Made by a program: the position numbers and the translations under genes
Notes under the pieces: model-generated
Told to the model about the DNA's origin: nothing
Databases searched by the model: none
Seen by the model: only the letters and a program-made list of their open reading frames with translations
Shown here: positions 7,863-19,417 of the stretch, piece by piece
How positions within the stretch are numbered: position 1 is the stretch's first letter
Layout of the letters: every line of letters begins with the position of its first letter
Assembly (NCBI GenBank): GCA_023381515.1
Contig: JAMCQI010000056.1
Span: 1 to 19,549 of the forward strand
DNA: 19,549 nucleotides
Source: Chloroflexota bacterium
GTDB taxonomy: Bacteria; Chloroflexota; Anaerolineae; UBA4142
Direction of reading: 5' to 3'

Positions 7863-7906
7863 TTGACAAAAGGAATGCCGCGCGGTAGTATATGCTATGC
7901 ATATAC
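7863..7906 (+). promoter_or_regulatory. Promoter P1 with PadR-PBP-type operator
   Basis: TTGACA (7863-7868), 17-bp spacer, TAGTAT (7886-7891). The 21-bp site at 7886-7906 starts at the first base of the -10 box and contains a perfect palindrome GTATATGC-TAT-GCATATAC. The same architecture, in the same register, occurs upstream of wtpA and of the PadR-PBP gene. A protein bound here would block RNA polymerase. Confidence 0.85.
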
Positions 7907-8009
7907 CAATGACGCGTACCGCGGGACTCGCGTTCGGCGACGAAGGCGGGTTGAGGCAAGCGCCTGAAAAACTCTTGCTCTGACATCTCCGTCAGAGCCA
8001 GGAGTTTTT
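7898..8009 (+). ncRNA. Short leader/sRNA candidate from P1 ending in a terminator
   Basis: From the predicted start near 7898 to the terminator is about 110 nt with no start-SD-ORF of note. It holds short paired segments (ACGCG...CGCGT; AGGC-AAGC-GCCT). A 14-nt block GGCGACGAAGGCGGG resembles GGCGACCGAGGCGGG in the wtpA leader. Either an sRNA released by termination or an attenuator for the small ORF at 8051. Boundaries are inferred. Confidence 0.4.
7967..8009 (+). terminator. Intrinsic terminator/attenuator hairpin
   Basis: GCTCTGAC (7977-7984) pairs with GTCAGAGC (7991-7998) around a 6-nt loop. This is extended by AAAAACTC (7967-7974) with GAGTTTTT (8002-8009), which supplies the U-run and, on the other strand, a second one. 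It stands between promoter P1 and the ATG at 8051, an unusual position that implies sRNA termination or attenuation. Confidence 0.75.
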
Positions 8010-8050
8010 GTTACCGATGAACGGGGTTACAAATCCGCACGGGAGCCATC

Positions 8051-8356
8051 ATGGCAGAATCACCCATCCCCAGCTTTGACAAATTGTCATTTGAAGAGGC
8101 CATCCGGATCCTGAAAGGCTGGGGATTTCAAGTCGAGCCGGGTCCCCGGCCCGAGGAGGTTTCCCTAATCACTAAAGCCGAAGACCATTGCACTTTTTCA
8201 GTGCACCCGGCCGAAATGCTCACGTCGGTCGTCGCCGCCGCCCTGCGCGTCCGGTGGCAGAACGGGATTCTGTTCGGCTCCATCTGGTGGGCCGGGGTGG
8301 GCGTCGACAGGGAGAATGTGTCGCGTGGGTCTTGGGATCACGCGCGTTTGCACTAG
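8051..8356 (+). CDS. Small protein of unknown function under the P1 operator
   Basis: 101 residues, not recognised. The first 75 look like a compact soluble domain: FEEAIRILKGWGFQVEPG is an amphipathic helix then strand, PEEVSLITKAEDHCTFSVHP continues alpha/beta, and VVAAALRVRWQNG is a helix ending in a basic-aromatic motif. After this the composition changes (ILFGSIWWAGVGVD onward, Gly/Trp-rich), so the original C-terminus may have been altered. No signal peptide or membrane segment. GGGAG lies about 6 nt before the ATG. It is the only gene between P1 and the convergent wtp operon, so it probably belongs to the regulon of the PadR-PBP protein, with the upstream terminator controlling read-through. 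Confidence 0.6.
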   Translation: MAESPIPSFDKLSFEEAIRILKGWGFQVEPGPRPEEVSLITKAEDHCTFSVHPAEMLTSVVAAALRVRWQNGILFGSIWWAGVGVDRENVSRGSWDHARLH

Positions 8357-8413
8357 CGACCTGGTTCAGTCGCCCGAAAGGGCACGGACGGCCAGCAGCG
8401 AGGAATCGCGGAT

Positions 8414-8629
8414 ATGAAGCGGGTTTTTATCGTTTCCAAGCACGAAATGTTTGGGAAGGGCATCGCCAAGCCAGGGCTCAAAGATAAAGGCGCGGACACT
8501 TTTGTGATTCTCCGCGCCTGTGCCGCGCCTTGGCGAATTCATCAGGTCGTGCAGCTAAGTTTGCCCGATGAGATGCACGGCCGCCGCTTCAATGTGGGCA
8601 ACCACTTCAGCACCGGGCGCGAGCTTTAG
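8414..8629 (+). pseudogene. Possible truncated receiver-like ORF overlapping the wtpC end
   Basis: A 71-codon frame starts MKRVFIVSKHEMFGKGI, which resembles the first strand and helix of LuxR/NarL-type receiver domains (V-D-D-H-x-x-F-x-x-G); the usual acidic pair is replaced by Ser-Lys. The resemblance stops after about 17 residues. The rest covers the wtp terminator and is antisense to the last 75 bp of wtpC, so it is not plausible coding sequence. GAGGAA precedes the ATG. Best read as a remnant or chance match. Confidence 0.25.
8488..8519 (-). terminator. Terminator of the wtp operon
   Basis: Perfect 9-bp stem AGGCGCGGA / TCCGCGCCT with a 14-nt loop, about 35 nt past the ATPase stop. On the minus strand it is followed by TTATCTTT, a modest U-rich tail. 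Confidence 0.55.
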
Positions 8630-9640
8630 GTCCAAATAGGTCCGCTTGGTGACAAAAGCCGTGAGCGGGAAACCACAGTCCAATTTGACCTTGAGCATCG
8701 GTCCTAGCGGCTCACCGCCGACGACGCGTCCCGGGAACTGATTCGCCCCCGCCGAGTCCTTTGCCGGAGGCCGGTTCAGCGCCACATCCTCCGGGCGGAT
8801 GCACACCAGCACACTCGGACTGCGGACCGCGCCATGATCCACCGCCTCGATTCTGCGCTCCGGGGTCACCTGGACGGTCGCAACCCCATCGTGGGTGCAC
8901 AGTACGCGACCCGCGATAATGGTCTCGACGCCCACAAAGCGGGCGACGAATTCGTCGACGGGCGCGCCAAAGACCTCGGACGGAGTACCCTCTTGCAGTA
9001 ACACCCCATCGCGGATGACCGCCAACCGGTCGGCCAGGACCAATGCCTCGGTCTGGTCGTGAGTGACGTAGATGGCGGGGACGCCGAGTTCGCGCAAAAG
9101 TGTCCTCAGCTCTTCGCGCAAGCTGTCGCGCGTGCGCGCGTCCAGCGCCGAGAGCGGTTCGTCGAAGAGGAAAAAGGCCGGCTCCATCGCCAACGCCCGC
9201 GCGAGCGCCACGCGCTGTTTCTCGCCCCCGCTCAAGTTGGACGGATGGCGTTCGGCAATCTGCTCCAGTCCCAGTCGAGCGAGCAAATCCTGGACCTGGG
9301 AATGCTCCGTAGGACGCGGTCTGCTTCTCCGGAACTGCAGTCCGAATTTGACGTTCTGGGCGACGGTGAGGTGCGGAAAGAGGGCGTAATCCTGAAACAT
9401 AAAGCCGACCCGCCGCGCCTCCGGGGCCGCGCGGGTGACGTCACGTCCCTCGATCAGGATTCGTCCGTGGTCGGGCCAATAGAACCCGGCGATCGTCTCC
9501 AGAAGAACCGACTTGCCGGCACCGCTGGGCCCCAGAATTCCATAGACTTGGCCCGGAGCGAGCGAGAACGAAATGTCCTGCAACGCAAACGTGCCAATCC
9601 GGAGCGAGACGCGTTCGACGGTAAGCGTGGAATCACTCAC
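8555..9640 (-). CDS. wtpC: Tungstate/molybdate ABC transporter ATP-binding protein
   Basis: 361-residue ABC ATPase of the molybdate/tungstate/sulfate importer group, located on the cytoplasmic face. Walker A GPSGAGKS (37-44), Q-loop Gln83, signature LSGGEKQR (136-143), Walker B with Asp160-Glu161, H-loop His194. The extra C-terminal part (about 235-361) contains a regulatory TOBE/MOP-like fold (FPGRVVGGEPLGPMLKVKLD and the segment ending in VHLI), which in ModC-type proteins can bind oxyanion and mediate trans-inhibition. ATGA overlap with the permease gene shows translational coupling. Last gene of the operon, followed by a hairpin terminator. The symbol follows from the WtpA-type binding protein; ModC would be an equally fair name from this protein alone. 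Confidence 0.9.
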   Translation of the reverse strand: MSDSTLTVERVSLRIGTFALQDISFSLAPGQVYGILGPSGAGKSVLLETIAGFYWPDHGRILIEGRDVTRAAPEARRVGFMFQDYALFPHLTVAQNVKFGLQFRRSRPRPTEHSQVQDLLARLGLEQIAERHPSNLSGGEKQRVALARALAMEPAFFLFDEPLSALDARTRDSLREELRTLLRELGVPAIYVTHDQTEALVLADRLAVIRDGVLLQEGTPSEVFGAPVDEFVARFVGVETIIAGRVLCTHDGVATVQVTPERRIEAVDHGAVRSPSVLVCIRPEDVALNRPPAKDSAGANQFPGRVVGGEPLGPMLKVKLDCGFPLTAFVTKRTYLDLKLAPGAEVVAHIEAAAVHLIGQT

Positions 9641-10452
9641 ATGCGCCGCCCTCCTGGAGTGACCCGGCCATACGAGAGGTGGCGGAGGATGATGAAAACG
9701 GCCAGGGAGGCCGTCAAGAACAGGACTGCCATCGCGGAGGACTCGTCGAGGCCGGACTGTAAAAAGAGGTCATAGATCTTGACCGGTGCCGTCATCGGAT
9801 AGTAGGTCAGGATAATGACGGCGCCGAACTCGCTGATGGAGCGCGCGTACGTCAACATCAGACCGGTCCCGATTCCTCGCCAGGCCAGAGGCAACGTCAC
9901 GCGCCCGAACACGGACCACGGCCCTGCGCCCAGTGTGCGGGCCACGCGCTCGAGACGCGCATCCACCGATTCGAAACCGACGCGGGCCGCATTCACGGTA
10001 TAAGTCACGCTGACAAAGAGCATCGCGATGACGATGCCGCCCCAGGTCCCCCAGAACTGGAACCCCGTGACAGCGTTCACAGGACCGCCGATGATGCCGG
10101 TGCGCCCAAAGACGAACAACAAGGCAATGCCGACCACGGTGTGAGGAATGGCCAGGGGCAGGTCCACGACGGCTTCGACGCCCCCCTTTCCTGGAAAGGT
10201 CGTGCGCGCCAAGAGATAGGCCAGCGGAACGCCGAGCGCACCGGCCAGCAGGGCGGTCAGAAAGGCTGCCTCCAGGCTGAGCCAGATCGCGGACTGGACA
10301 TCCTCGATGGCGGCGATTTGCATCAGGGTCGCCGGGGTTTGCGTCGCGTACATCCGGAGCAGGGGTACCAGGATGAACGCGAGCAGCAAACCCCCGACGA
10401 CTGAGAAGACAAAGACGAGCCCGCGGGACTGACCGAGGGTCTGCGTCCGCAT
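9637..10452 (-). CDS. wtpB: Tungstate/molybdate ABC transporter permease
   Basis: 271-residue inner-membrane permease with about six helices, forming a homodimer that passes the oxyanion to the cytoplasm. The EAA coupling-loop motif is clear: ERVARTLGAGPWSVFGRVTL followed by PLAWRGI, about residues 168-194, with the invariant Gly nine residues after the Ala pair. LPLAIPHTVVGIALLF and SISEFGAVIIL are characteristic of ModB/CysT-type permeases. The gene starts one base after the wtpA stop and overlaps wtpC by four bases. Confidence 0.92.
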   Translation of the reverse strand: MRTQTLGQSRGLVFVFSVVGGLLLAFILVPLLRMYATQTPATLMQIAAIEDVQSAIWLSLEAAFLTALLAGALGVPLAYLLARTTFPGKGGVEAVVDLPLAIPHTVVGIALLFVFGRTGIIGGPVNAVTGFQFWGTWGGIVIAMLFVSVTYTVNAARVGFESVDARLERVARTLGAGPWSVFGRVTLPLAWRGIGTGLMLTYARSISEFGAVIILTYYPMTAPVKIYDLFLQSGLDESSAMAVLFLTASLAVFIILRHLSYGRVTPGGRRM

Positions 10453-10453
10453 A

Positions 10454-11530
10454 CTAAGGGCTCGGCCAGGCCGTGATGAGCTTACTCAGGTCGGGCGGGG
10501 CCTTGCTGATGTCGTTGACATACGCGGGCGCCACCGACCCAAACCCATTCTTGGTCATGACCGCTTGGCCGTCGCCGCCGAGGAGGAACTGCAGATACTT
10601 GATCGCCCAATCGGAGTGGGCAGCATTATTGGGAATCGTTACGGCATAGACGATGGGTGAACCGGTCAAGGTGCCGTTGGCCGTCTGCGCTTTGGCTTGG
10701 GCATATGAGGAGGAGTACTTGGCATCGCTCAAGTTGATCTGCGGCGGCAGGTCCAGGTACTTGAAATTGTGCTGGCGTGCATCTGAGAGATAAATGGCAA
10801 GGTAGTCGATCTGGCCCGACTGGAGCGCCGCGATCAACTCTGTTTCCGTGTCGCGCATGTTCGTCTTGGGAGCGTTCGCCAGGATAGCGTTGGCCAGACC
10901 CGGCTGGTTATAGTACTTTTCGGCGAGGTCGAGCATCTGCACGGTCTGGTAGCCCGATGGATCGGTGTCCGGATTCGAGCGCCCGATTTGGACGCCCGGG
11001 CGCGCCAGGACCTGATACCAGTTCTGGGGAGTGATCTCGCCGGCGAACTTGCTCTTGTCGGTGTACACGAACGTGATGGCGTTCGTAGCAAAACCCGCAT
11101 ACCAGTTGGTGTAGGCGGTCTTACCGTTCTTTCCAAAGAGGTAGCTCGGAATGACATTATAGTCGGCGACGGCTACCACATCCGCAATTTGGTGCAGGTC
11201 GGTCACCTGCTTGACCATCTTGACGCTGCCTCCGAACTGCGGCTGAACGGTGACATTCGGGTACTGCTTGGTAAATTCCGCGTCCAGTTGTTTAAAGGGG
11301 TTGGCCAGTGTCCCGGCGCCAAAAAGGGTCAGCGTGACCTTGGATGCCGCGGTCGCGGATGAACCTCCCGCGGGGGCGGAGGTAGGAATGGCTGCCGAGG
11401 TTGCCGATGTTGTTGCCGAGGTCGGCGATGTGGCGGCAGCGGTTGGCGGGGCGGGCGTCGGGGTCGCGGCGCAGGCGCTTGCCACCAGCGCGAAAAGGGC
11501 GACGACGACAGGAAAAGTTAGTCTTGTCAT
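10454..11530 (-). CDS. wtpA: Tungstate/molybdate-binding lipoprotein
   Basis: 358-residue extracytoplasmic binding protein. ATG at 11530 has GGAGG 7 nt upstream; an open frame reaching 11788 is only the leader. Signal peptide 1-19 ends VASAC with lipidated Cys20, followed by a Pro/Thr/Ala/Ser-rich linker to about 62. The mature domain is WtpA-like rather than ModA-like: GAGTLANPFKQLDAEFTKQY, GGSVKMVKQVTDL, ADVVAVADYNVIP, FATNAITFVYTDKSKF, NPDTDPSGYQ, AALQSGQIDYLAIYLSDARQ, LPPQINL and PIVYAVTIPNNA all correspond to landmarks of archaeal WtpA, including acidic residues that give octahedral tungstate/molybdate coordination in that family. High affinity for tungstate is known for the family and inferred here. 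Expression is probably set by promoter P2 with its operator and by a 250-nt structured leader. Confidence 0.93.
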   Translation of the reverse strand: MTRLTFPVVVALFALVASACAATPTPAPPTAAATSPTSATTSATSAAIPTSAPAGGSSATAASKVTLTLFGAGTLANPFKQLDAEFTKQYPNVTVQPQFGGSVKMVKQVTDLHQIADVVAVADYNVIPSYLFGKNGKTAYTNWYAGFATNAITFVYTDKSKFAGEITPQNWYQVLARPGVQIGRSNPDTDPSGYQTVQMLDLAEKYYNQPGLANAILANAPKTNMRDTETELIAALQSGQIDYLAIYLSDARQHNFKYLDLPPQINLSDAKYSSSYAQAKAQTANGTLTGSPIVYAVTIPNNAAHSDWAIKYLQFLLGGDGQAVMTKNGFGSVAPAYVNDISKAPPDLSKLITAWPSP

Positions 11531-11773
11531 GCGTGATCCTCCAAGCTGGGATGAGTGGAAGCCAAGGGGCTTCGGCCGGATGCTCAATAGCCGTGCATAA
11601 GAGATCGGTCCCGCCTCGGTCGCCTGGCGAAGCAAAACGACAGAGAAGCCACCTCCTTTCGGGAAAAACCAGGGTCGCCTGACCGGGGGCTTGTTGCATG
11701 CCGCCACGCGCGGGGACGGAACCATGGTAGAGCCGGAGGGAAAATTCCGTGCCGGGCGATGAACCATGCAACT
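11531..11773 (-). promoter_or_regulatory. Structured 5' leader of wtpABC
   Basis: Between promoter P2 and wtpA lies about 250 nt of transcribed leader. Nested pairs seen: GTTGCATG/CATGCAAC (11693-11700 with 11765-11772), CGCC/GGCG (11702-11705 with 11755-11758), ACGGAA/TTCCGT (11716-11721 with 11745-11750). Downstream come an AAGCC/GGCTT domain enclosing GGTC-aggc-GACC, and a GAAGCC-loop-GGCTTC hairpin (11558-11573) about 30 nt before the start. This suggests RNA-level control, conceivably by molybdenum/tungsten cofactor or oxyanion. I cannot match it to a named riboswitch from memory. Confidence 0.45.
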
Positions 11774-11817
11774 GTATATGCAATGCATATTCTATTCGCG
11801 CTCTGCCCATTTGTCAA
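11774..11817 (-). promoter_or_regulatory. Promoter P2 of wtpABC with PadR-PBP-type operator
   Basis: Minus strand: TTGACA (11812-11817), 17-bp spacer, TAGAAT (11789-11794). The 21-bp site 11774-11794 begins at the -10 box and reads GAATATGC-ATT-GCATATAC, one mismatch from a perfect palindrome. Same geometry as P1 and P3. Confidence 0.85.
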
Positions 11818-11872
11818 TGCGCGTTCCGAGGCGGGTGTAGTTCAGTTTCGGGGCGAATCGACACAGACGAGC

Positions 11873-12006
11873 GTCAATGCGAGGAGCCGCGAAGCGGCGG
11901 CGTCCTGTGAAGTGCCATCCCGCAGACCCCGCGGGAGCATAGCGGGGCGGGCGCAAACTCGGCCTCGGGTGAGATTGCTTCGCTCCCTACGGTCGCTCGC
12001 AATGAC
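11873..12006. repeat. REP/MITE-like element with inverted ends
   Basis: 134-bp segment bounded by GTCAATGCGAG (11873-11883) and CTCGCAATGAC (11996-12006), inverted copies with one mismatch. Internal palindromes include GCCGCGAAGCGGC and CCCGC-GGG. The right half (GAGATTGCTTCGCTCC...) resembles a REP-type sequence I recall as widespread in environmental bacterial genomes. It sits between the divergent promoters P2 and P3. No ORF. Confidence 0.6.
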
Positions 12007-12160
12007 GAGTTGCCCCCGATCTGAACCGCACTCTCCGAGGCGGGGCGCCCATCCAGGCTCCGCGTCGGCGCGCCTCACGGGGTGAGCAGCGGGAATTCAC
12101 GCGGCCGGGATTTCAATCTCCGCCGGAAGAGCTTACGTAAACCCACAGCCCCCAGGGCAT

Positions 12161-12204
12161 TTGACAAATCAGCCGCGGCGGGATACTATGTGCATAACAT
12201 ATAC
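12161..12204 (+). promoter_or_regulatory. Promoter P3 of the regulator operon with its operator
   Basis: TTGACA (12161-12166), 17-bp spacer, TACTAT (12184-12189). The 21-bp site 12184-12204 reads TA-CTATGTGC-ATA-ACATATAC, the weakest match to the palindrome, as expected for an autoregulated gene kept partly on. The leader is short (about 30 nt). Confidence 0.82.
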
Positions 12205-12228: not shown

Positions 12229-13452
12229 ATGAACCCTTCTTATGCCTTGCTCGGCCTGCTCTTCAACGGCGAGCGACACGGCTACGACCTCAAGCAAACG
12301 GTGGACCGTGAGTTTGCTCCGTTTTGGCGCATTGACTTTGCTCAACTATATCGTTCCTTCGCGAGAATGAAGCAGAAAGGCTGGATTCAGCCGCGGGTCG
12401 AGCCCAGTTCCGGCGGTCCCGACCGGAAGATGTACCGATTGACGCCGAGCGGCCGTAAGGCGTTCAAAGCCTGGCTCCAGGTGCCCGCGGCGGGTCGAGA
12501 CGAGTTCTTTGTTAAATTGCGCCTTGCCAACGCCGCAGGCATCGCCATCGACAGCGTCGTAGCCACCGAGCGCGAATCTCTGGAGAGCGAACATGCAGAA
12601 CGCTTGCGGACACTGCACGCGGCGCGCGACGCCGGAGATGCCGGGCGGATTGTTCTGGCGGATGCCGCCTTCCGGGAGACCGAAGCCGCCCTCACGGCTC
12701 TTCATCTCTGGACGAATACGACGCCCACCCCAAGGGGGACGCCCAAGTCCGGAAGGGCGCCGGCAAGCGTTGTCATCACCGGCAGCGACGACCCGCTGCT
12801 CAGCTTTCTGGCGCAGCTCAGCGGCTCTACGGCGACTGCGGTCGGCAGCCTGACCGGCCTTCTCATTCTCGCCCGGCATGAGGCGGACATTGCCGGCGTG
12901 CACCTCCTCGATCTGGAAACCGGCGAATACAATGCCCCCTTCGTCAAGCACCTCATGCCGGAAGATTCGTCCGTGTTGGTCAATCTCGCTTTCCGAACAA
13001 ACGGTTTAATGATCGCCCACGGCAACCCTAAACGGATACGCAGTGTGCGCGACCTGGCGCGTCCGGATATTCGTTTCATCAATCGTCAACGCGGCGCGGG
13101 CACGCGCCTTCTCCTTTTTTCCAAGCTGTGTGCGGCGCATGTCGATCCGCATGCCCTCCCCGATTGGGAACGCGAGGTTTCCACGCATGAGGCTGTCGCC
13201 GCCGCGGTGGCCACCGGCCATGCCGATGCTGGCCCGGGGTTGGAGGCGGTCGCCGCCGAATGGGACCTCGATTTCATTCAGTTGGGTGAGGAACGCTACG
13301 ATTTGGCGATGCTGCAAGAGACGTTTGACTCGGGGCGCTTGCAGCCCTTGCTGGAGGCCCTGCAGGGCGCCCCGTTTCGCAGCAAGGGCGCCGAGTTGCG
13401 GGGGTATGACCTCAAGCGCAGCGGGAGCGTGGTTGCCCGTATCAAACAATAG
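12229..13452 (+). CDS. PadR-type winged-helix regulator fused to a PBP-like ligand-sensing domain
   Basis: 407-residue one-component regulator. Residues 1-85 are a PadR winged helix: YALLGLLFNGERHGYDLKQTV, FAQLYRSFARMKQKGWI and the wing GGPDRKMYRLTPSGRKAF. A helical linker (about 95-165) resembles the PadR dimerisation helices. From about 185 to 400 comes a domain of the PBP-like superfamily found fused to MoeA and to HTH proteins: LLSFLAQL, GSLTGLLILARHEADIAGVHLLD, LVNLAFRTNGLMIAHGNP, INRQRGAGTRLLLFSKL, EAVAAAVATGHADAGPG. That domain is known from molybdate-related proteins, so it probably binds an oxyanion or cofactor in the cytoplasm. GAGGG precedes the ATG. First gene of its operon, behind an operator shared with wtpABC and P1. 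Whether ligand promotes or relieves DNA binding is unknown. Confidence 0.88.
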   Translation: MNPSYALLGLLFNGERHGYDLKQTVDREFAPFWRIDFAQLYRSFARMKQKGWIQPRVEPSSGGPDRKMYRLTPSGRKAFKAWLQVPAAGRDEFFVKLRLANAAGIAIDSVVATERESLESEHAERLRTLHAARDAGDAGRIVLADAAFRETEAALTALHLWTNTTPTPRGTPKSGRAPASVVITGSDDPLLSFLAQLSGSTATAVGSLTGLLILARHEADIAGVHLLDLETGEYNAPFVKHLMPEDSSVLVNLAFRTNGLMIAHGNPKRIRSVRDLARPDIRFINRQRGAGTRLLLFSKLCAAHVDPHALPDWEREVSTHEAVAAAVATGHADAGPGLEAVAAEWDLDFIQLGEERYDLAMLQETFDSGRLQPLLEALQGAPFRSKGAELRGYDLKRSGSVVARIKQ

Positions 13453-13460
13453 GGAGAGGC

Positions 13461-14276
13461 ATGAAGATAGCGCGGGTTACGGATTGGATCCAATTGTGGC
13501 GGGAGTTGGTCGAGGCGCAGTCGCCCGAGCCCGAACGCAAGGGCAAGCCGAAAGGGCCGCACATGGCGGCCCAGCGGCGCTGGGCGAAACCGGATTGCAC
13601 TCTGGATTTTATCGTGTCGCAACTCAAGGCCGCCCCCGACGCCACCGTACTCGACATCGGCGCCGGAACAGGGAGGTGGGCCGTTCTCTTGTCGCCGCAC
13701 GCCCGTCACATCACGGCGGTCGATTCATCGCCGGCGATGATTGACGCGATGCGGGAAAATCTTGCCGCCGCAGGGGTGAGCAACGTAGAGATCGTCGCGG
13801 GATCATGGCCCGACGTCCAGATGACCCCGCACAGCTTTTCGTTCTGTTCCCACGGCATGTACGGCTCTCCCGATCTGCCGGCGTTCATCCGGAGTATGGA
13901 GCAAGTGACGCGGCGCACTTGTTTCCTTATTCTGCGCGCGCCCGTCCCGGATGGAATCATGGCCCAGGCCGCCCTGCGGATTTGGGGCCATCCGTACGAC
14001 AGCCCCAATTTCCAGGTCTGCTACAACGCGCTCCTCCAGATGGGGATTTTCGCGAATGTGCTGATGGCGGACGCCGGACTGTGGAGCCCGTGGAAGAATT
14101 CCACTTTGGAGGAGGCCCTGGTCGAAATCAAGCGGCGCTTTGGGCTGGCCGGACCGAGCGAGCACGACGAATTCCTCGCCGACCTGCTGCGCCGCGAATT
14201 GACGCTGGAGGACGGGCAGTATGTCTGGCCGCGCAGCGTTCGCTCGGCAATGATCTATTGGAATCCAAACGGATAG
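13461..14276 (+). CDS. Class I SAM-dependent methyltransferase of unknown substrate
   Basis: 271 residues. SAM-binding motif I VLDIGAGTGRWAV (63-75), acidic Asp88 in ITAVDSSPAM that would hold the ribose, then EIVAGSWPDV and FSFCSHGMYGSPDLPAFI typical of methyltransferase-11/25 folds. N-terminal 45 residues are basic and begin with DWIQLWRELVEAQ; the C-terminal 90 residues carry a helical extension not explained by the core fold. The gene starts 8 bp after the regulator stop with GGGAGAGG, so it is firmly in the operon. A methyltransferase is not part of known molybdate or tungstate uptake, and its substrate cannot be inferred; a thiol/pterin or small-metabolite substrate is only a guess. Confidence 0.8.
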   Translation: MKIARVTDWIQLWRELVEAQSPEPERKGKPKGPHMAAQRRWAKPDCTLDFIVSQLKAAPDATVLDIGAGTGRWAVLLSPHARHITAVDSSPAMIDAMRENLAAAGVSNVEIVAGSWPDVQMTPHSFSFCSHGMYGSPDLPAFIRSMEQVTRRTCFLILRAPVPDGIMAQAALRIWGHPYDSPNFQVCYNALLQMGIFANVLMADAGLWSPWKNSTLEEALVEIKRRFGLAGPSEHDEFLADLLRRELTLEDGQYVWPRSVRSAMIYWNPNG

Positions 14277-15401: not shown

Positions 15402-15407
15402 GTGAGT

Positions 15408-15914
15408 GTGTCGCAGAAAACGAGGATATGGATTGTGGTCGCCGGGCTCGTGGTCGTCGCGGCGGTGCTGGCAGGCGTCGGATTCTTGTCGCAGAATCAG
15501 GCGACCCAGGCGCCTGCCACGACTCCCCAGCCGGGGATGATTCACTTGTACGTGAACGGCAGCTTTGCCGCCAATCTCTTACCCGCGGAAATGCAAAAGC
15601 TGCCGGCGGCGTCCTTCGTGGATAAGGAACAGGGCAAGACACAAAAGGGTTACTGGCTGAGAGACGTCCTCCAGCTGTACGTCAAGGAGAATGCTCTCTC
15701 GCCCTCCACTCAAATCACTTTCACCGGGTCGCGCCAGGGAACCGAAAAGAGCGCCACCGTCACGTGGGCGGAGACGCTCGACCCGGCCAACCATATTCTT
15801 TTCAGCCCCTCGAACGACGGTACCTCCGTGAAAATCGCCGCGACGATGGACAAGCTAGCCACGCGCGACAATTGGATCCAGGGGCTCACGCAGATCGGCG
15901 TTCAGACGAAATAG
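15408..15914 (+). CDS. Membrane-anchored small domain resembling the SUOX/molybdopterin-oxidoreductase fold
   Basis: 168 residues from GTG at 15408, chosen because GAGAGG ends 5 nt before it; a GTG at 15402 is inside that SD. One N-terminal membrane segment (IWIVVAGLVVVAAVLAGVGF) and a Gln/Ala/Pro linker place the domain outside the cytoplasm. The domain (about 42-168) has a pattern reminiscent of small sulfite-oxidase-like proteins: LPAASFVDKEQGKTQKGYWLRDVLQLYV, ITFTGSRQG, TVTWAETLDPANHILF, DNWIQGLTQIGV. It contains no cysteine at all, so it cannot ligate Mo as SUOX does; binding of a cofactor or substrate is the likelier role. Two bases separate its stop from the ECF S gene, suggesting that it serves as an external partner of that transporter. 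Family assignment is tentative. Confidence 0.6.
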   Translation: MSQKTRIWIVVAGLVVVAAVLAGVGFLSQNQATQAPATTPQPGMIHLYVNGSFAANLLPAEMQKLPAASFVDKEQGKTQKGYWLRDVLQLYVKENALSPSTQITFTGSRQGTEKSATVTWAETLDPANHILFSPSNDGTSVKIAATMDKLATRDNWIQGLTQIGVQTK

Positions 15915-15916
15915 AA

Positions 15917-16477
15917 ATGTCCAGTCCAGTCGCGCGCCCACATTATTTTACGACGTTCGAATTGATTCTGCTCACCTTGTTCTCAGCCCTCGTGGTCGTG
16001 GACAAGATCGTGTTGCACTTGCCCCTCGACCTGCCCGGACATTCGGGCGTGACCTGGATGGCGATCCTCGTGGTCGCACGCGGGCTCGTGCCCAAGCCCG
16101 GCGCTCTGTCGCTCGTCGGACTCTTGAGTGGACTGCTCGCCGCCTTCCTCGGATTGGGCGATCTGGGGGCGATCTACACCGTCTTTTCTTATCTGGCTTC
16201 CGGAGTGGGCGTCGATCTGATCGCGCTATTCCTCGGGGGCGTGGATCCCATCGCGGCGGCCGCGTTGGCGGGCATTGTCGGCAATGTGGCCAAGATGCTC
16301 GTCAAGACGGGGATGGCGGTCCTGCTCCAAATCCCGGCCGGTTTCGTGGCGCTCGGTTTGCTCTACTCCTTCTTCACAAATACCGTCGCCGGTCTTTTGG
16401 GCGGCCTCCTCGGTTGGCTCCTTCTGCGTGCTTTGCGCCGCGCCGGGTTCTTCCTCTATCTCGCCGAAAAGCGTTAA
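15917..16477 (+). CDS. ECF-type transporter S (substrate-binding) component
   Basis: 186-residue membrane protein with about six helices, rich in Gly/Leu/Ala, with the helix pattern and size of ECF S components: VVVDKIVLHLPLDLPGHSGVTWMAILVVARGLV, GLLSGLLAAFLG, TVFSYLASGVGVDLIALFLG, ALAGIVGNVAKMLVKTGMAVLL, FTNTVAGLLGGLLGWLLLRAL. ATG at 15917, 2 bp after the SUOX-like gene; SD weak, fitting translational coupling. The A and T components lie on the opposite strand directly downstream, and the stop codons overlap at TTAA (16474-16477). Its motifs do not let me assign it to a known specificity such as biotin, thiamin, cobalt or riboflavin. The Mo/W context suggests a cofactor- or metal-linked substrate (inference). 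Confidence 0.78.
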   Translation: MSSPVARPHYFTTFELILLTLFSALVVVDKIVLHLPLDLPGHSGVTWMAILVVARGLVPKPGALSLVGLLSGLLAAFLGLGDLGAIYTVFSYLASGVGVDLIALFLGGVDPIAAAALAGIVGNVAKMLVKTGMAVLLQIPAGFVALGLLYSFFTNTVAGLLGGLLGWLLLRALRRAGFFLYLAEKR

Positions 16478-17220
16478 CGCCAGAAAAAGACGACTCCCGT
16501 GATCGCGAGGGCGGCGAGAAGCAATATCCCATCGGCGGACTGGAGCGCCAGCTGCCGGTAAGGGCGGCGCCGCGGCGAGTCAAAACCGCGCGTATGCGCG
16601 GCTTCGGTATAGGTCCACGCCCGCTTGACTGTCAGCACGATCGCGGGCACCCCCAGCGCCACCAACCCACTCAATTGATCTCCGACCCGGCGGAGGCCGC
16701 GCACGTCTTGCCACGCGCCGCGGGAACGCTGCGCCTCCAGAATGTTGAGAAATTCCTCCTGCATCAGCGAGATCGAAAGGAAAGCCAGGCTCAGCGAGAA
16801 AGCATAGGCGTAGGGCATCCTCAGATGTTCCATGGCCAATCGAAACTCTTCCGGGGTCGTCGTCGCGAAAAAGAGCGTAAAGGCGGAGACGACGAGAACA
16901 AAGCGCAGAGTGATGAGGACAGCAAAGGTCAAGCCCACGCCCACCCAGTCGAGGATGAACAGGAGGACCAGGATGAAGGCGATGCGGCGCACCTGGTAGA
17001 GCATTTCTTTCGTCAACCGGGCGGCGACGATCCCGACGGCAAAAATGAGCCAGAAGACGGCCAGACGCTCGAGCGGCAGCATGACGGAGAGTGCGACCAG
17101 AATGCAGACTCCAAGCTTGACGCGTGGATCGATGCGCCGGAGCGGCGAGTCGGGAACCATGCGGATCAGCCGCCGGTGTTCACCCGTGCCTCGTCTCCGG
17201 AAGGGATTCAACGGATTCAC
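16474..17220 (-). CDS. ecfT: ECF transporter T (transmembrane coupling) component
   Basis: 248 residues from GTG at 17220; ATG at 17160 (228 residues) is the alternative. The frame stays open to 17496 but overlaps the ATPase gene without need. DSPLRRIDPRVKLGV near the N-terminus is the standard EcfT opening. Four or more hydrophobic helices follow. The two coupling motifs with the conserved Arg are visible: LEAQRSRG and AAHTRGFDSP, which contact the ATPase pair. A final helix (GILLLAALAITGVVFFW) closes the protein. Third gene of the minus-strand operon, 16 bp after the ATPase stop; convergent with the S gene, whose stop codon it overlaps. Confidence 0.85.
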   Translation of the reverse strand: MNPLNPFRRRGTGEHRRLIRMVPDSPLRRIDPRVKLGVCILVALSVMLPLERLAVFWLIFAVGIVAARLTKEMLYQVRRIAFILVLLFILDWVGVGLTFAVLITLRFVLVVSAFTLFFATTTPEEFRLAMEHLRMPYAYAFSLSLAFLSISLMQEEFLNILEAQRSRGAWQDVRGLRRVGDQLSGLVALGVPAIVLTVKRAWTYTEAAHTRGFDSPRRRPYRQLALQSADGILLLAALAITGVVFFWR

Positions 17221-17236
17221 GTGAAGGTGACCTCGG

Positions 17237-18667
17237 TCATCCGATCGGCTCCCAGATCCACTCGGGCACGCGCAGGTGGACGTGCTGCCACAAGCTCGAG
17301 TCCCGCAGCAGCATCGACGGCGATCCATTCGCAATGATGCGCCCCTCGTGCAGCACGACCATCTGCGTGGCATAGTGGGCCGCCCAGGCCAGATCGTGCG
17401 TCGCCACGACGACGACCCGTCCCGCCTGCGCCAACGCGCTTGCCATATTTCCCAACAGAACTCGGTGACGATCGTCCTGTCCCAGCGTCGGCTCATCCAG
17501 CAAAATGCCGTGGCGGGGTTGGTGCATCAACACCATCGCCAGGCAGAGGCGTTTCTTTTCGCCCTCGCTGAGAAGCAGTGGGGACGAGGTTTCATAACGG
17601 GCCAACCCCAATTCCCCCAGCAGCCACCGATACAGTTCCTCGTTTGGCTCCTTCACCCGGTAGAGAATCTCCTCACGGATCGTCGGATTAAAGAGCTGCA
17701 AATCAGGATTCTGGTAGACGAGTCCCAGGTCCGGTTTGCCGTCGCTCGCCTTGACTTGCCCCGCGTGCCGCTGCAGACCGACCAAAGACCGCAAGAGCGT
17801 CGTCTTGCCGGAGCCGTTCACGCCGACGAGTGCGACGATTTGCCCGCTCGACAGCTCCAGACTTAGGCGATCGAGCACACTGTGTTCTCCGAACGTCACA
17901 GACAGGTTGTCGACATGCAGGCAAAACTCCCGGGCGGCGGAAAGAGGCGCAGCAGAAGAGTCTTCCTGTACGACATGCGTGGCGGGCGGATTAAGAGCGT
18001 GCTCTCGACGTTCGAGGGCGTGCTCCCGAAAGGCGCTCGCATCGCTAAAGTAGTGGGAGCGGTGCTCGCACACGACGACTGCGCGGCCCTGTTGCGCCAA
18101 CTCGGTCAAATGGCGGACTAGGTCGGTCGCGGCCGTGGTGTCGAGCATCGAGAGCGGCTCGTCGAGGACGAAAAGAGGAGTCTGTCGTGACAGCATCGCG
18201 GCGAGCATCACCCGCTGGCCCTCGCCGCCGCTCAGCCGCCGGGGATCCTGGGTTCGAAATCGTTCCAGTCCGAAACGGTTCAGACTCGCTGCAATCCGTT
18301 GCCCGATTTCCGCCCGCGGCAACCCCAGATTCTCCATCCCAAAGGCGAGTTCGTCTTCGACGGTGGAGGCCAACATCTGGCCTTGCGTGTTTTGCAGGAC
18401 CATACCCGCTTTTTCCGAGAGCTGCCAGAGGGGAGTCTCGTGCGTGCGGCAGCCGTCCAACCAAACCGCACCCTCCAGTTGGCCTTTGTAGAGGTGGGGA
18501 ATCAGTCCGACGAGGCAGCGCGCGAGCGTGGATTTGCCGCACCCGGAGGCGCCGGTGATCAGCAGGCATTCGCCTGCAGAAACGCCGAGCGTCACATCGT
18601 GAAAGCTCGGCGTCGATTGACCGTGGTACGTATAGGCCAGAGACTGGACATCGAGAAGGGGGGACAT
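17237..18667 (-). CDS. ecfA: ECF transporter double ATPase (fused A-A')
   Basis: 476-residue protein with two complete ABC domains. First: Walker A GASGCGKST (39-47), Q-loop LQNTQGQMLA, signature LSGGEGQR (145-152), Walker B LFVLDEP with Asp169-Glu170. Second: Walker A GVNGSGKTT (282-290), Q-loop YQNPDLQLFNPT, signature LSEGEKKR (366-373), Walker B GILLDEP with Asp391-Glu392, H-loop His424. The two Q-loop types and the 'LSEGEKKR' variant are normal for fused EcfA pairs. A linker at about 215-245 separates the halves. The start at 18667 overlaps the upstream stop as TAATG; a longer frame to 18691 is not needed. It powers uptake through EcfT and an S component. One fused ATPase with no S gene in its own operon suggests that it serves the convergent S protein, and maybe others. 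Confidence 0.9.
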   Translation of the reverse strand: MSPLLDVQSLAYTYHGQSTPSFHDVTLGVSAGECLLITGASGCGKSTLARCLVGLIPHLYKGQLEGAVWLDGCRTHETPLWQLSEKAGMVLQNTQGQMLASTVEDELAFGMENLGLPRAEIGQRIAASLNRFGLERFRTQDPRRLSGGEGQRVMLAAMLSRQTPLFVLDEPLSMLDTTAATDLVRHLTELAQQGRAVVVCEHRSHYFSDASAFREHALERREHALNPPATHVVQEDSSAAPLSAAREFCLHVDNLSVTFGEHSVLDRLSLELSSGQIVALVGVNGSGKTTLLRSLVGLQRHAGQVKASDGKPDLGLVYQNPDLQLFNPTIREEILYRVKEPNEELYRWLLGELGLARYETSSPLLLSEGEKKRLCLAMVLMHQPRHGILLDEPTLGQDDRHRVLLGNMASALAQAGRVVVVATHDLAWAAHYATQMVVLHEGRIIANGSPSMLLRDSSLWQHVHLRVPEWIWEPIG

Positions 18668-19365
18668 TAGTCCAGTTTGAGGGGCAGCCACACGGACGGA
18701 TTGTCTTCTTGCGGCTTGACGACGAGGACCGCCTGATTGCCGCGCAGCGCCGGCCGCAGCTTGCCGCCGGTTTCCACCAGACCCGTTTGGAGCGCTGCTC
18801 CTTCGGACGTGCGCACCGCGGCAATCCCATGTTCGAGAATTGCTTGCACCGACTGTACGCCCGCCAGTTCACGGGATCGCCCTACGAGGACGAAACGCCC
18901 ATCCTCGCCGGTGGCCGCAAGGCCAACCCCGGCCAAGGCGCCGATGACGCCGTCTTGCGTGCCGCCCAATCCCCGCAAGACGCAGCCGTTGCGCTCGGCG
19001 ATTTCGCGCGCTTCTGCCTGCCGGAGCAGCTCGGTCTTGGCCCGGTGCCCGAACGCGATCATCTCGGACGTCAAGGTCCGTGCCACGCACAAGCCGGGGT
19101 CGCTGCCGGGTTGAAAATCCGCCAGCATCACGGCCTCGACTTGATCGGCCAACGCGACCAGGTCGACGTTCCCATCCGCCAGTAAATGGACGACGTTGCA
19201 GCTATTGTGCGACGTGTACGGCACACGGGGGTCGACCAACAACTGGTGTCGTGTGACACCACGCACCTGATAGCTAACGGAGAGCGAGGCCGCCACCGCG
19301 CGCGCCAGGTTGCCCGTTCCTCTCGAAGTCTTGTTATCCGTGTCGTCCAACCCGATATAAATCAC
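18667..19365 (-). CDS. Short TiaS-like protein (DDTD kinase-like and ferredoxin-like domains)
   Basis: 232 residues from GTG at 19365, supported by GGAGG 6 nt upstream; the frame stays open to 19416, but that would begin inside the operator and start of transcription. MIYIGLDDTDNKTSRGTGNLARAVAASL matches the N-terminus of archaeal TiaS (tRNA-Ile2 agmatidine synthetase), including the DDTD motif (7-10) of its unusual kinase domain. GVTRHQLLVDPRVPYTSHNSCNVVHL and GLGGTQDGVIGALAGVGLA correspond to the later kinase-like and ferredoxin-like domains. The OB-fold and zinc-ribbon domains that TiaS uses to hold tRNA are missing (archaeal TiaS is about 420 residues), and bacteria use TilS instead. So tRNA modification is unlikely. 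Its TAATG coupling to the ECF ATPase suggests a role in use or activation of the transported compound, possibly ATP-dependent. Confidence 0.7.
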   Translation of the reverse strand: MIYIGLDDTDNKTSRGTGNLARAVAASLSVSYQVRGVTRHQLLVDPRVPYTSHNSCNVVHLLADGNVDLVALADQVEAVMLADFQPGSDPGLCVARTLTSEMIAFGHRAKTELLRQAEAREIAERNGCVLRGLGGTQDGVIGALAGVGLAATGEDGRFVLVGRSRELAGVQSVQAILEHGIAAVRTSEGAALQTGLVETGGKLRPALRGNQAVLVVKPQEDNPSVWLPLKLD

Positions 19366-19396
19366 AAAGAGCCTCCGCGGTCCCGGTCTTGAATCG

Positions 19397-19417
19397 GCCA
19401 CTATATGTATAGACACC
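19397..19417. promoter_or_regulatory. Operator copy 1 of the ECF operon
   Basis: 21-bp site around core CTATATGTATAG, flanked by GCCA and ACACC. An inverted copy with a single change (core CTATATATATAG) lies at 19529-19549. On the minus strand it covers the predicted start site, just downstream of the -10 box of the TiaS-like/ecfA/ecfT promoter. It differs from the GTATATGC-N3-GCATATAC operator, so another regulator is implied. Confidence 0.65.

What the first reader, a model, noticed from the sequence alone, without database searches (positions are those of the whole stretch)
7863..12204. Three promoters with one operator in identical register define a PadR-PBP regulon
P1 (7863-7906, +), P2 (11774-11817, -) and P3 (12161-12204, +) each have TTGACA, exactly 17 bp, and a -10 box whose first base opens a 21-bp site, consensus TA-GTATATGC-N3-GCATATAC. 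P1 carries a perfect palindrome. P2 drives wtpABC and P3 the regulator itself; identical placement argues for one repressor-like protein acting at the -10. A PadR-PBP fusion as a molybdate/tungstate one-component sensor, distinct from ModE, with a readable operator, would be new to me.
Basis: partly seen in the sequence, partly recalled or inferred. Interest (0 to 1): 0.8.

Follow-up and report, generated by a model that had tools for sequence, protein, structure and literature searches.

The report
Tungsten-sensing PadR regulator and its operator
An uncultured Chloroflexota bacterium carries a gene switch, probably a tungsten sensor fused to a PadR DNA-binding domain, whose short mirror-image DNA site lies in front of its own gene, of tungsten-uptake genes and, in relatives, of some tungsten and molybdenum aldehyde enzymes; it is predicted, not yet tested.

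Summary
In detail: P1, P2 and P3 each carry TTGACA-N17-(-10 box) with one palindrome in the same register. It is a conserved operator. Upstream of 19 of 19 readable PadR-PBP genes a leave-one-out profile picks STATATGYA-N-TGCATATAS; 0 of 1900 shuffles score as high. In the 20 held genomes of the order the 24 best-scoring sites precede padR-PBP, tungsten/molybdenum genes or P1-type units. Targets: padR-PBP, usually with tupABC-like genes; wtpABC; tupA; a molybdopterin aldehyde oxidoreductase; and 3 of 128 tungsten-AOR matches. At uptake, autoregulatory and Mo-enzyme promoters the operator centre is near -1 (repressor position); at the three AOR promoters it is at -44, -44 and -67 (activator-like). 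Best reading: a tungstate-responsive one-component regulator whose loaded form shuts off uptake and turns on the W enzyme. Closest known kind: TaoR, the same sensor type on another HTH. Ligand, polarity and activation are inferred. P1's product is open.

The parts
7863..7906 (+). P1: TTGACA, 17 bp, TAGTAT, with operator GTATATGCTATGCATATAC at 7888-7906
7968..8008 (+). strong hairpin ending in T5 downstream of P1; could end a P1 RNA of about 115 nt (or act for the other strand)
   Evidence: -22.8 kcal/mol, z -6.47 for 7968-8016. The tool's terminator scan lists it on the minus strand
8051..8356 (+). 101-aa ORF beyond the hairpin, with relatives in metagenomes, function unknown; possible P1 target
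   Evidence: 16 proteins at E<=0.001, its own copy included; no Pfam match
8555..9640 (-). wtpC-like ABC ATPase
   Evidence: best NCBIfam WtpC, 338.1 bits, below cut-off 440
9637..10452 (-). wtpB-like permease
   Evidence: best NCBIfam WtpB, 263.2 bits, below cut-off 340
10454..11530 (-). wtpA, tungstate substrate-binding protein
   Evidence: TIGR03730, 274.6 bits against cut-off 242.75; the second WtpA model PRK04168 below its cut-off (297.4 against 355)
11774..11817 (-). P2: TTGACA, 17 bp, TAGAAT, with operator; would drive wtpABC through a leader of about 250 nt
12161..12204 (+). P3: TTGACA, 17 bp, TACTAT, with operator CTATGTGCATAACATATAC, 24 bp before the padR-PBP ATG
12229..13452 (+). 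padR-PBP regulator, 407 aa: PadR winged helix 7-80, helical linker, PBP_like 202-379
13461..14276 (+). SAM methyltransferase, 8 bp after padR-PBP; also next to W/Mo transport genes in two relatives
   Evidence: L203; L264
14299..15063 (+). modA-like molybdate-binding protein, likely same operon
   Evidence: TIGR01256, 206.4 bits against cut-off 62.5

Best explanation
The 407-aa protein is a one-component tungstate (perhaps tungstate/molybdate) sensor: an AphA-type PadR winged helix, presumably dimeric, fused to a type-2 periplasmic-binding-protein domain (PF12727). Loaded with the oxyanion, the dimer binds a 19-bp palindrome, STATATGYA-N-TGCATATAS. Where the palindrome is centred near -1 (its own promoter P3, wtpABC P2, tupABC, tupA, a Mo-aldehyde oxidoreductase, P1) it blocks RNA polymerase. 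Where it lies at -44 or -67 (some tungsten AOR promoters in relatives) it recruits polymerase. With enough tungsten, uptake and the Mo enzyme are off and the W enzyme is on; without tungsten the reverse. Shown from sequence: the palindrome, its conservation, its register, its targets, the domain architecture. Inferred: binding by this protein, dimerisation, the ligand, that the loaded form binds, and activation at AOR.
For: Site upstream of 19/19 readable orthologues, leave-one-out, 0/1900 shuffles. Right arm, which has no promoter role, 1.47 bits per base against 0.03 downstream (anchored on the chosen sites). Of 27 sites placed, 24 are not at AOR genes; 21 of these are centred at -1, 22 with L016's second-best promoter. 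In the 20 genomes of the order, 24 of 31 places score above 21: padR-PBP 15, AOR 3, P1-type 2, wtpABC, tupA, mop and padR-modABC 1 each (profile trained partly on these sites, cut set after seeing the scores). TupABC-like genes follow padR-PBP in 15 of 19 relatives and wtpABC is divergent in the window (families). The AOR beside the L015 site is followed by a tungsten-cofactor radical-SAM maturase (TIGR04317, 421.9 against cut-off 380), and mop is NF045668 (1648.7 against 1100). Phylum background at up to 1 mismatch: 13 of 400 genomes, G001 included. PBP part near ModA and tungstate-bound WtpA, PadR part near Rv1176c; nearest PDB sequence AphA, E 9.7e-20. PF12727 is also the extra domain of a MoeA needed for the tungsten cofactor of AOR in D. 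vulgaris (passage of PMC10102598).
Against: No binding or expression data. The PBP fold ties with phosphate-binding proteins. The AOR role rests on 3 of 128 AOR-domain matches in the order, in two genera. G001, nearest to the window, has 9 such matches, some only contig-end pieces, and no site at them. The AOR-plus-maturase counterpart in G423, which keeps a padR-PBP fragment at a contig end, has no site, nor has the one in G430, where no padR-PBP was found. G424 (97% complete) has a perfect tupA site but no padR-PBP found. L022 and L024 have the palindrome without a recognisable -35 and, like L021, no tup-like genes beside it. L020 lacks residues 1-75 of the regulator right after the site. 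TupA, TupB, WtpB and WtpC score below NCBIfam cut-offs.
Confidence: 0.65

Rival explanations
1. Same regulator and operator, but a pure repressor: at AOR genes the upstream site also represses (by looping or by hindering polymerase at the -35), or serves another weak promoter, so there is no dual role.
For: Only three AOR sites. In L015 and L023 the operator reaches the first base of the -35, so steric hindrance is possible (sequences). Counterpart AOR genes in G423 and G430 lack the site.
Against: Repressing a tungsten enzyme when tungsten is plentiful makes little sense. The -67 site in L144 is about 21 bp clear of the -35. AphA, the nearest PDB match by sequence, is an activator of tcpPH (passage of PMC6855506).
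Confidence: 0.2
2. The protein senses molybdate (or both oxyanions alike), and tungsten genes are only part of a Mo/W regulon.
For: A modA gene follows in the window. JGI names relatives 'molybdate-binding protein/DNA-binding PadR family transcriptional regulator'. ModA rows rank as high as WtpA rows in the fold comparison. G424 has a weaker site before a PadR gene with modABC.
Against: TupABC-like genes follow padR-PBP in 15 of 19 relatives, and the activator-type sites are at tungsten AOR genes, two of them with a W-type maturase next to them.
Confidence: 0.3
3. The palindrome is bound by another protein and only travels with padR-PBP.
For: G424 keeps a perfect tupA site without a padR-PBP found, and it, like G413, G414, G416 and G430, has other PadR proteins.
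Against: The site precedes padR-PBP itself in 19 of 19 readable cases across two families of the order and records with other labels. In L019 and L021 both operator arms change together (CTATAGG..CCTATAG) and the recognition-helix region of the protein differs too (two cases only).
Confidence: 0.1

Closest known systems
TaoR family (Rajeev et al. 2019, not held; seen only through passages of PMC11980592 and PMC10102598)
   Same: HTH and PBP-like sensor domain; [quoted passage not shown] DVU3193, cited to the same paper, as regulator of tungstate uptake
   Different: The HTH of TaoR-like proteins is HTH_17 ('excisionase-like' is recalled); here the DNA-binding part is a PadR winged helix with its own palindrome
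ModE
   Same: Works alike in outline: an oxyanion-loaded regulator that represses uptake and activates enzyme genes (recalled)
   Different: No TOBE domain and no other HTH than PadR found in this protein
AphA / PadR family
   Same: PadR winged helix; AphA is the best PDB match by sequence; its site ATGCAA-N4-TTGCAT (passage of PMC6855506) shares the ATGCA/TGCAT arms
   Different: Arms here are 1 bp apart and extended by TATA, and a PBP sensor is fused on; AphA has none (recalled; its solved chain is 179 aa)
TunR (recalled: Kazakov et al. 2013)
   Same: Tungstate-responsive control of Mo/W transport inferred by comparing sites and promoters
   Different: Recalled as having a XerC/D-like DNA-binding part and a ModE-like sensor; neither is seen here

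Membership tests
PadR family | PF03551 winged helix | tested here: met
   E 1.3e-16, 60.7 bits against 27
PadR family | dimer binding a two-fold symmetric operator, often autoregulatory | tested here: inconclusive
   palindrome at own promoter in 19/19 readable orthologues; binding itself not tested
PBP_like (PF12727) sensors | PF12727 domain with type-2 PBP fold | tested here: met
PBP_like (PF12727) sensors | binds molybdate or tungstate | not testable with these tools
   fold ties with phosphate binders
ModE | TOBE oxyanion-binding domain | tested here: not met
   no TOBE in the regulator at E<=0.01
TaoR | HTH_17-type DNA-binding domain | tested here: not met
   one search lists PadR and no HTH_17; defining feature from PMC11980592
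TaoR | PBP-like sensor domain | tested here: met
TaoR | controls tungsten AOR and W transport | tested here: inconclusive
   operator at wtp/tup promoters and at 3 of 128 AOR-domain matches; no expression data
WtpABC | WtpA, WtpB and WtpC above curated cut-offs | tested here: inconclusive
   TIGR03730 above; PRK04168, WtpB and WtpC below, though best hits

The most novel reading that the evidence does not exclude
One palindrome, read by one tungstate-loaded PadR-PBP dimer, acts as repressor site at -1 and activator site at -44/-67, building a metal-choice switch: W-AOR on and Mo-aldehyde oxidoreductase plus W uptake off when tungsten is present, the reverse when it is scarce. In two genomes the same operator also controls a short hairpin-ended RNA (P1 type) that would be made under tungsten starvation, in the manner of Fur and RyhB.
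Probability: 0.3. Interest if true: 0.75.

Novelty: new variant of a known kind. Interest (0 to 1): 0.58.

Why it matters
Few tungsten-responsive regulators are known (recalled). This one comes with a readable operator, a small regulon found by comparing genomes, and two clearly different promoter positions that predict opposite effects. If true, it shows that the PBP-like Mo/W sensor has been joined to at least two unrelated DNA-binding domains, and it gives a direct test of how cells choose between tungsten and molybdenum enzymes for similar aldehyde chemistry.

Tried and rejected
Riboswitch in the leaders: Rfam found nothing at gathering cut-offs in the window. Site as a chance promoter feature: rejected, because the right arm lies downstream of the -10 and is conserved while flanks are not, and shuffles never reach it. 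Site as a general PBP_like element: in the 66 loci L025-L090, whose match lacks the PadR part, the best profile score is 14.5, against 17.3 or more at padR-PBP genes. AOR genes in general as targets: rejected; 3 of 128 AOR-domain matches in the order have a site within 2 mismatches (some matches are contig-end pieces). In the 42 loci scanned by profile (L206-L247; 30 of the 128 matches plus 12 fetched stretches, some overlapping) no site scored 8 or more; the three site-bearing AOR genes were not among them. A shared P1-type RNA: local alignment of the two is weak (score 14), so a conserved RNA family is not shown; each holds a possible 28-aa ORF, not alike. The seven lower-scoring places (20.6 and less): six lie inside open frames and one (G416:C245) lies between a TetR-like gene and another frame; set aside. 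Covariation of operator and recognition helix: two variant cases only. Literature: searches showed, in the rows listed (capped; titles and abstract starts), no paper joining PadR with tungstate or molybdate sensing. The library holds open-licence PMC papers only, so this is weak. Rajeev et al. 2019 was not held and may mention other fusions.
Full report
1. What is there. Each has TTGACA, 17 bp, and a -10 box overlapped by a palindrome that starts 2 bases into the box. The sites are P1 GTATATGCTATGCATATAC (7888-7906), P2 GAATATGCATTGCATATAC (minus strand, 11792-11774) and P3 CTATGTGCATAACATATAC (12186-12204).

3. The operator is conserved. Of 80 loci returned by the genome scan (136 relatives were found and the best 80 kept), 13 match the PadR part and L020 begins at residue 76 (L011-L024). 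L011 is the window's near twin and L017 has an N gap before the gene, which leaves 12. With the window and six loci of a second family of the order (L196-L199, L201, L202) that makes 19. In all 19 the best leave-one-out profile hit in the 250 bases before the gene (start codon, or frame start for L020) is the palindrome I had picked, 2 to 90 bases before the start, scores 19.5 to 32.4; 0 of 1900 shuffles score as high, the highest being 17.3. Information per base is 1.45 and 1.47 bits in the two arms, 0.26 between the promoter boxes and 0.03 downstream. The 19 include records titled Deltaproteobacteria (L021) and Proteobacteria (L022, L024).

4. The regulon. In the 20 held genomes of the order, 31 distinct places match within 2 mismatches. 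Scored by the profile (trained partly on these sites, cut chosen after seeing the scores), 24 score above 21: padR-PBP 15, AOR 3, P1-type 2, wtpABC 1, tupA 1, mop 1, padR-modABC 1 (the weakest, 21.7). Of the seven at 20.6 and less, six lie in open frames and one beside a TetR-like gene. In 400 genomes of the phylum, 13 (G001 included) match within 1 mismatch. padR-PBP was found in 16 of the 20 genomes of the order (14; G413 and G416), plus a fragment at a contig end in G423, followed by a methyltransferase and tupAB-like genes. G422 (69% complete), G424 (97%) and G430 (87%) have none found; G424 still has a tupA site.

5. Neighbours. TupABC-like genes follow padR-PBP in 15 of 19 relatives: L012-L020, L023, L196-L199 and L202; not in L021, L022 and L024, and L201 ends too soon (BLAST against the L196 genes; in L013 and L014 other transport-like genes come between). 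L196 TupA has TupA as its only NCBIfam hit, below cut-off; its TupB hits the TupB model below cut-off. In the window wtpABC is divergent from padR-PBP, and a methyltransferase and modA follow it. The genome of L013 (G402) has a further site (stretch L140) before a molybdopterin-dependent aldehyde oxidoreductase, NF045668 well above cut-off. In L015 and L023 a site lies before an AOR gene followed by a radical-SAM gene; the L015 one scores above cut-off as tungsten-cofactor maturase and the L023 one is 92% identical to it. In L144 a site lies before another AOR. AOR-domain matches number 128 in the 20 genomes, so these are a chosen few, and the counterpart AOR genes in G423 and G430 have no site.

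6. Position and mechanism. Of 27 placed sites, 24 are not at AOR genes: 21 have the operator centre at -1 relative to the predicted start (spacers of 17, in five cases 16), L016 does with its second-best promoter, and L022 and L024 show no good promoter. The three AOR sites are at -44, -44 and -67, upstream of TTGACA or TTGACT, 17 bp, TACAAT or TAGAAT. Repressor at -1 and activator at -44 or -67 is the plain reading. For an uptake system and a tungsten enzyme to make sense together, the oxyanion-loaded form must be the one that binds. That polarity is inference.

7. P1. Both P1 of the window and a second site in L013 (7727) stand before a stretch that folds better than shuffles (z -4.52 and -2.50; the L013 stretch folded stops short of its last stem). 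In the window a hairpin of -22.8 kcal/mol ends in T5. In L013 a long-range stem ends in T6 before the padR-PBP promoter. They may be short regulatory RNAs, but the two are hardly alike, each has a 28-aa ORF, and in the window a 101-aa ORF with metagenomic relatives follows (16 proteins). I leave this open.

8. Comparison with the known. [quoted passage not shown] PMC10102598 gives DVU3193 as regulator of tungstate uptake and notes PF12727 in a MoeA needed for the tungsten cofactor (passages). So a PBP-like W/Mo sensor fused to a DNA-binding domain is known. The PadR fusion's palindrome and the two promoter positions are what is new, as far as the listings of searches show; the fusion itself already bears an automatic JGI name. 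ModE membership fails on the TOBE domain; TaoR membership fails on the HTH type; it is predicted to work like both.

Noticed in passing
13461-14276: A SAM methyltransferase sits directly after padR-PBP here, after the padR-PBP fragment in L264 (before tupAB-like genes, by eye), and after modABC in L203. A link of this methyltransferase to Mo/W transport is unexplained.
   Followed up: partly
15402-18691: A 170-aa ORF with a membrane-like N-terminus and no family hits, a weak ABC_cobalt-like S component (15911-16477, below cut-off), and convergent ECF T-like and double ATPase genes (16474-18691). An ECF-type transporter of unknown substrate lies near the tungstate regulator; L014 ends with a 72%-identical piece of the ATPase.
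   Followed up: no
L203 (G424:C36), site about 5448: A PadR protein without a PBP domain (Vir_act_alpha_C tail) stands before modABC with a weaker, related palindrome at its -10.
   Followed up: partly
L019 and L021: The operator is CTATAGG..CCTATAG with both arms changed together, and the recognition-helix region of the protein differs from the usual one.
   Followed up: partly
genomes of the order: All 20 held genomes carry AOR-domain matches, 2 to 15 each, 128 in all: a tungsten-enzyme-rich group.
   Followed up: no
18667-19416: A protein with a TiaS-like (TCKD) domain just over the Pfam cut-off; by eye a like protein lies beside the ECF ATPase in L014.
   Followed up: no
L020, 1153-1178: The operator is followed at once by residue 76 of the regulator, so the DNA-binding domain is missing there; a real deletion or an assembly fault cannot be told apart.
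   Followed up: partly
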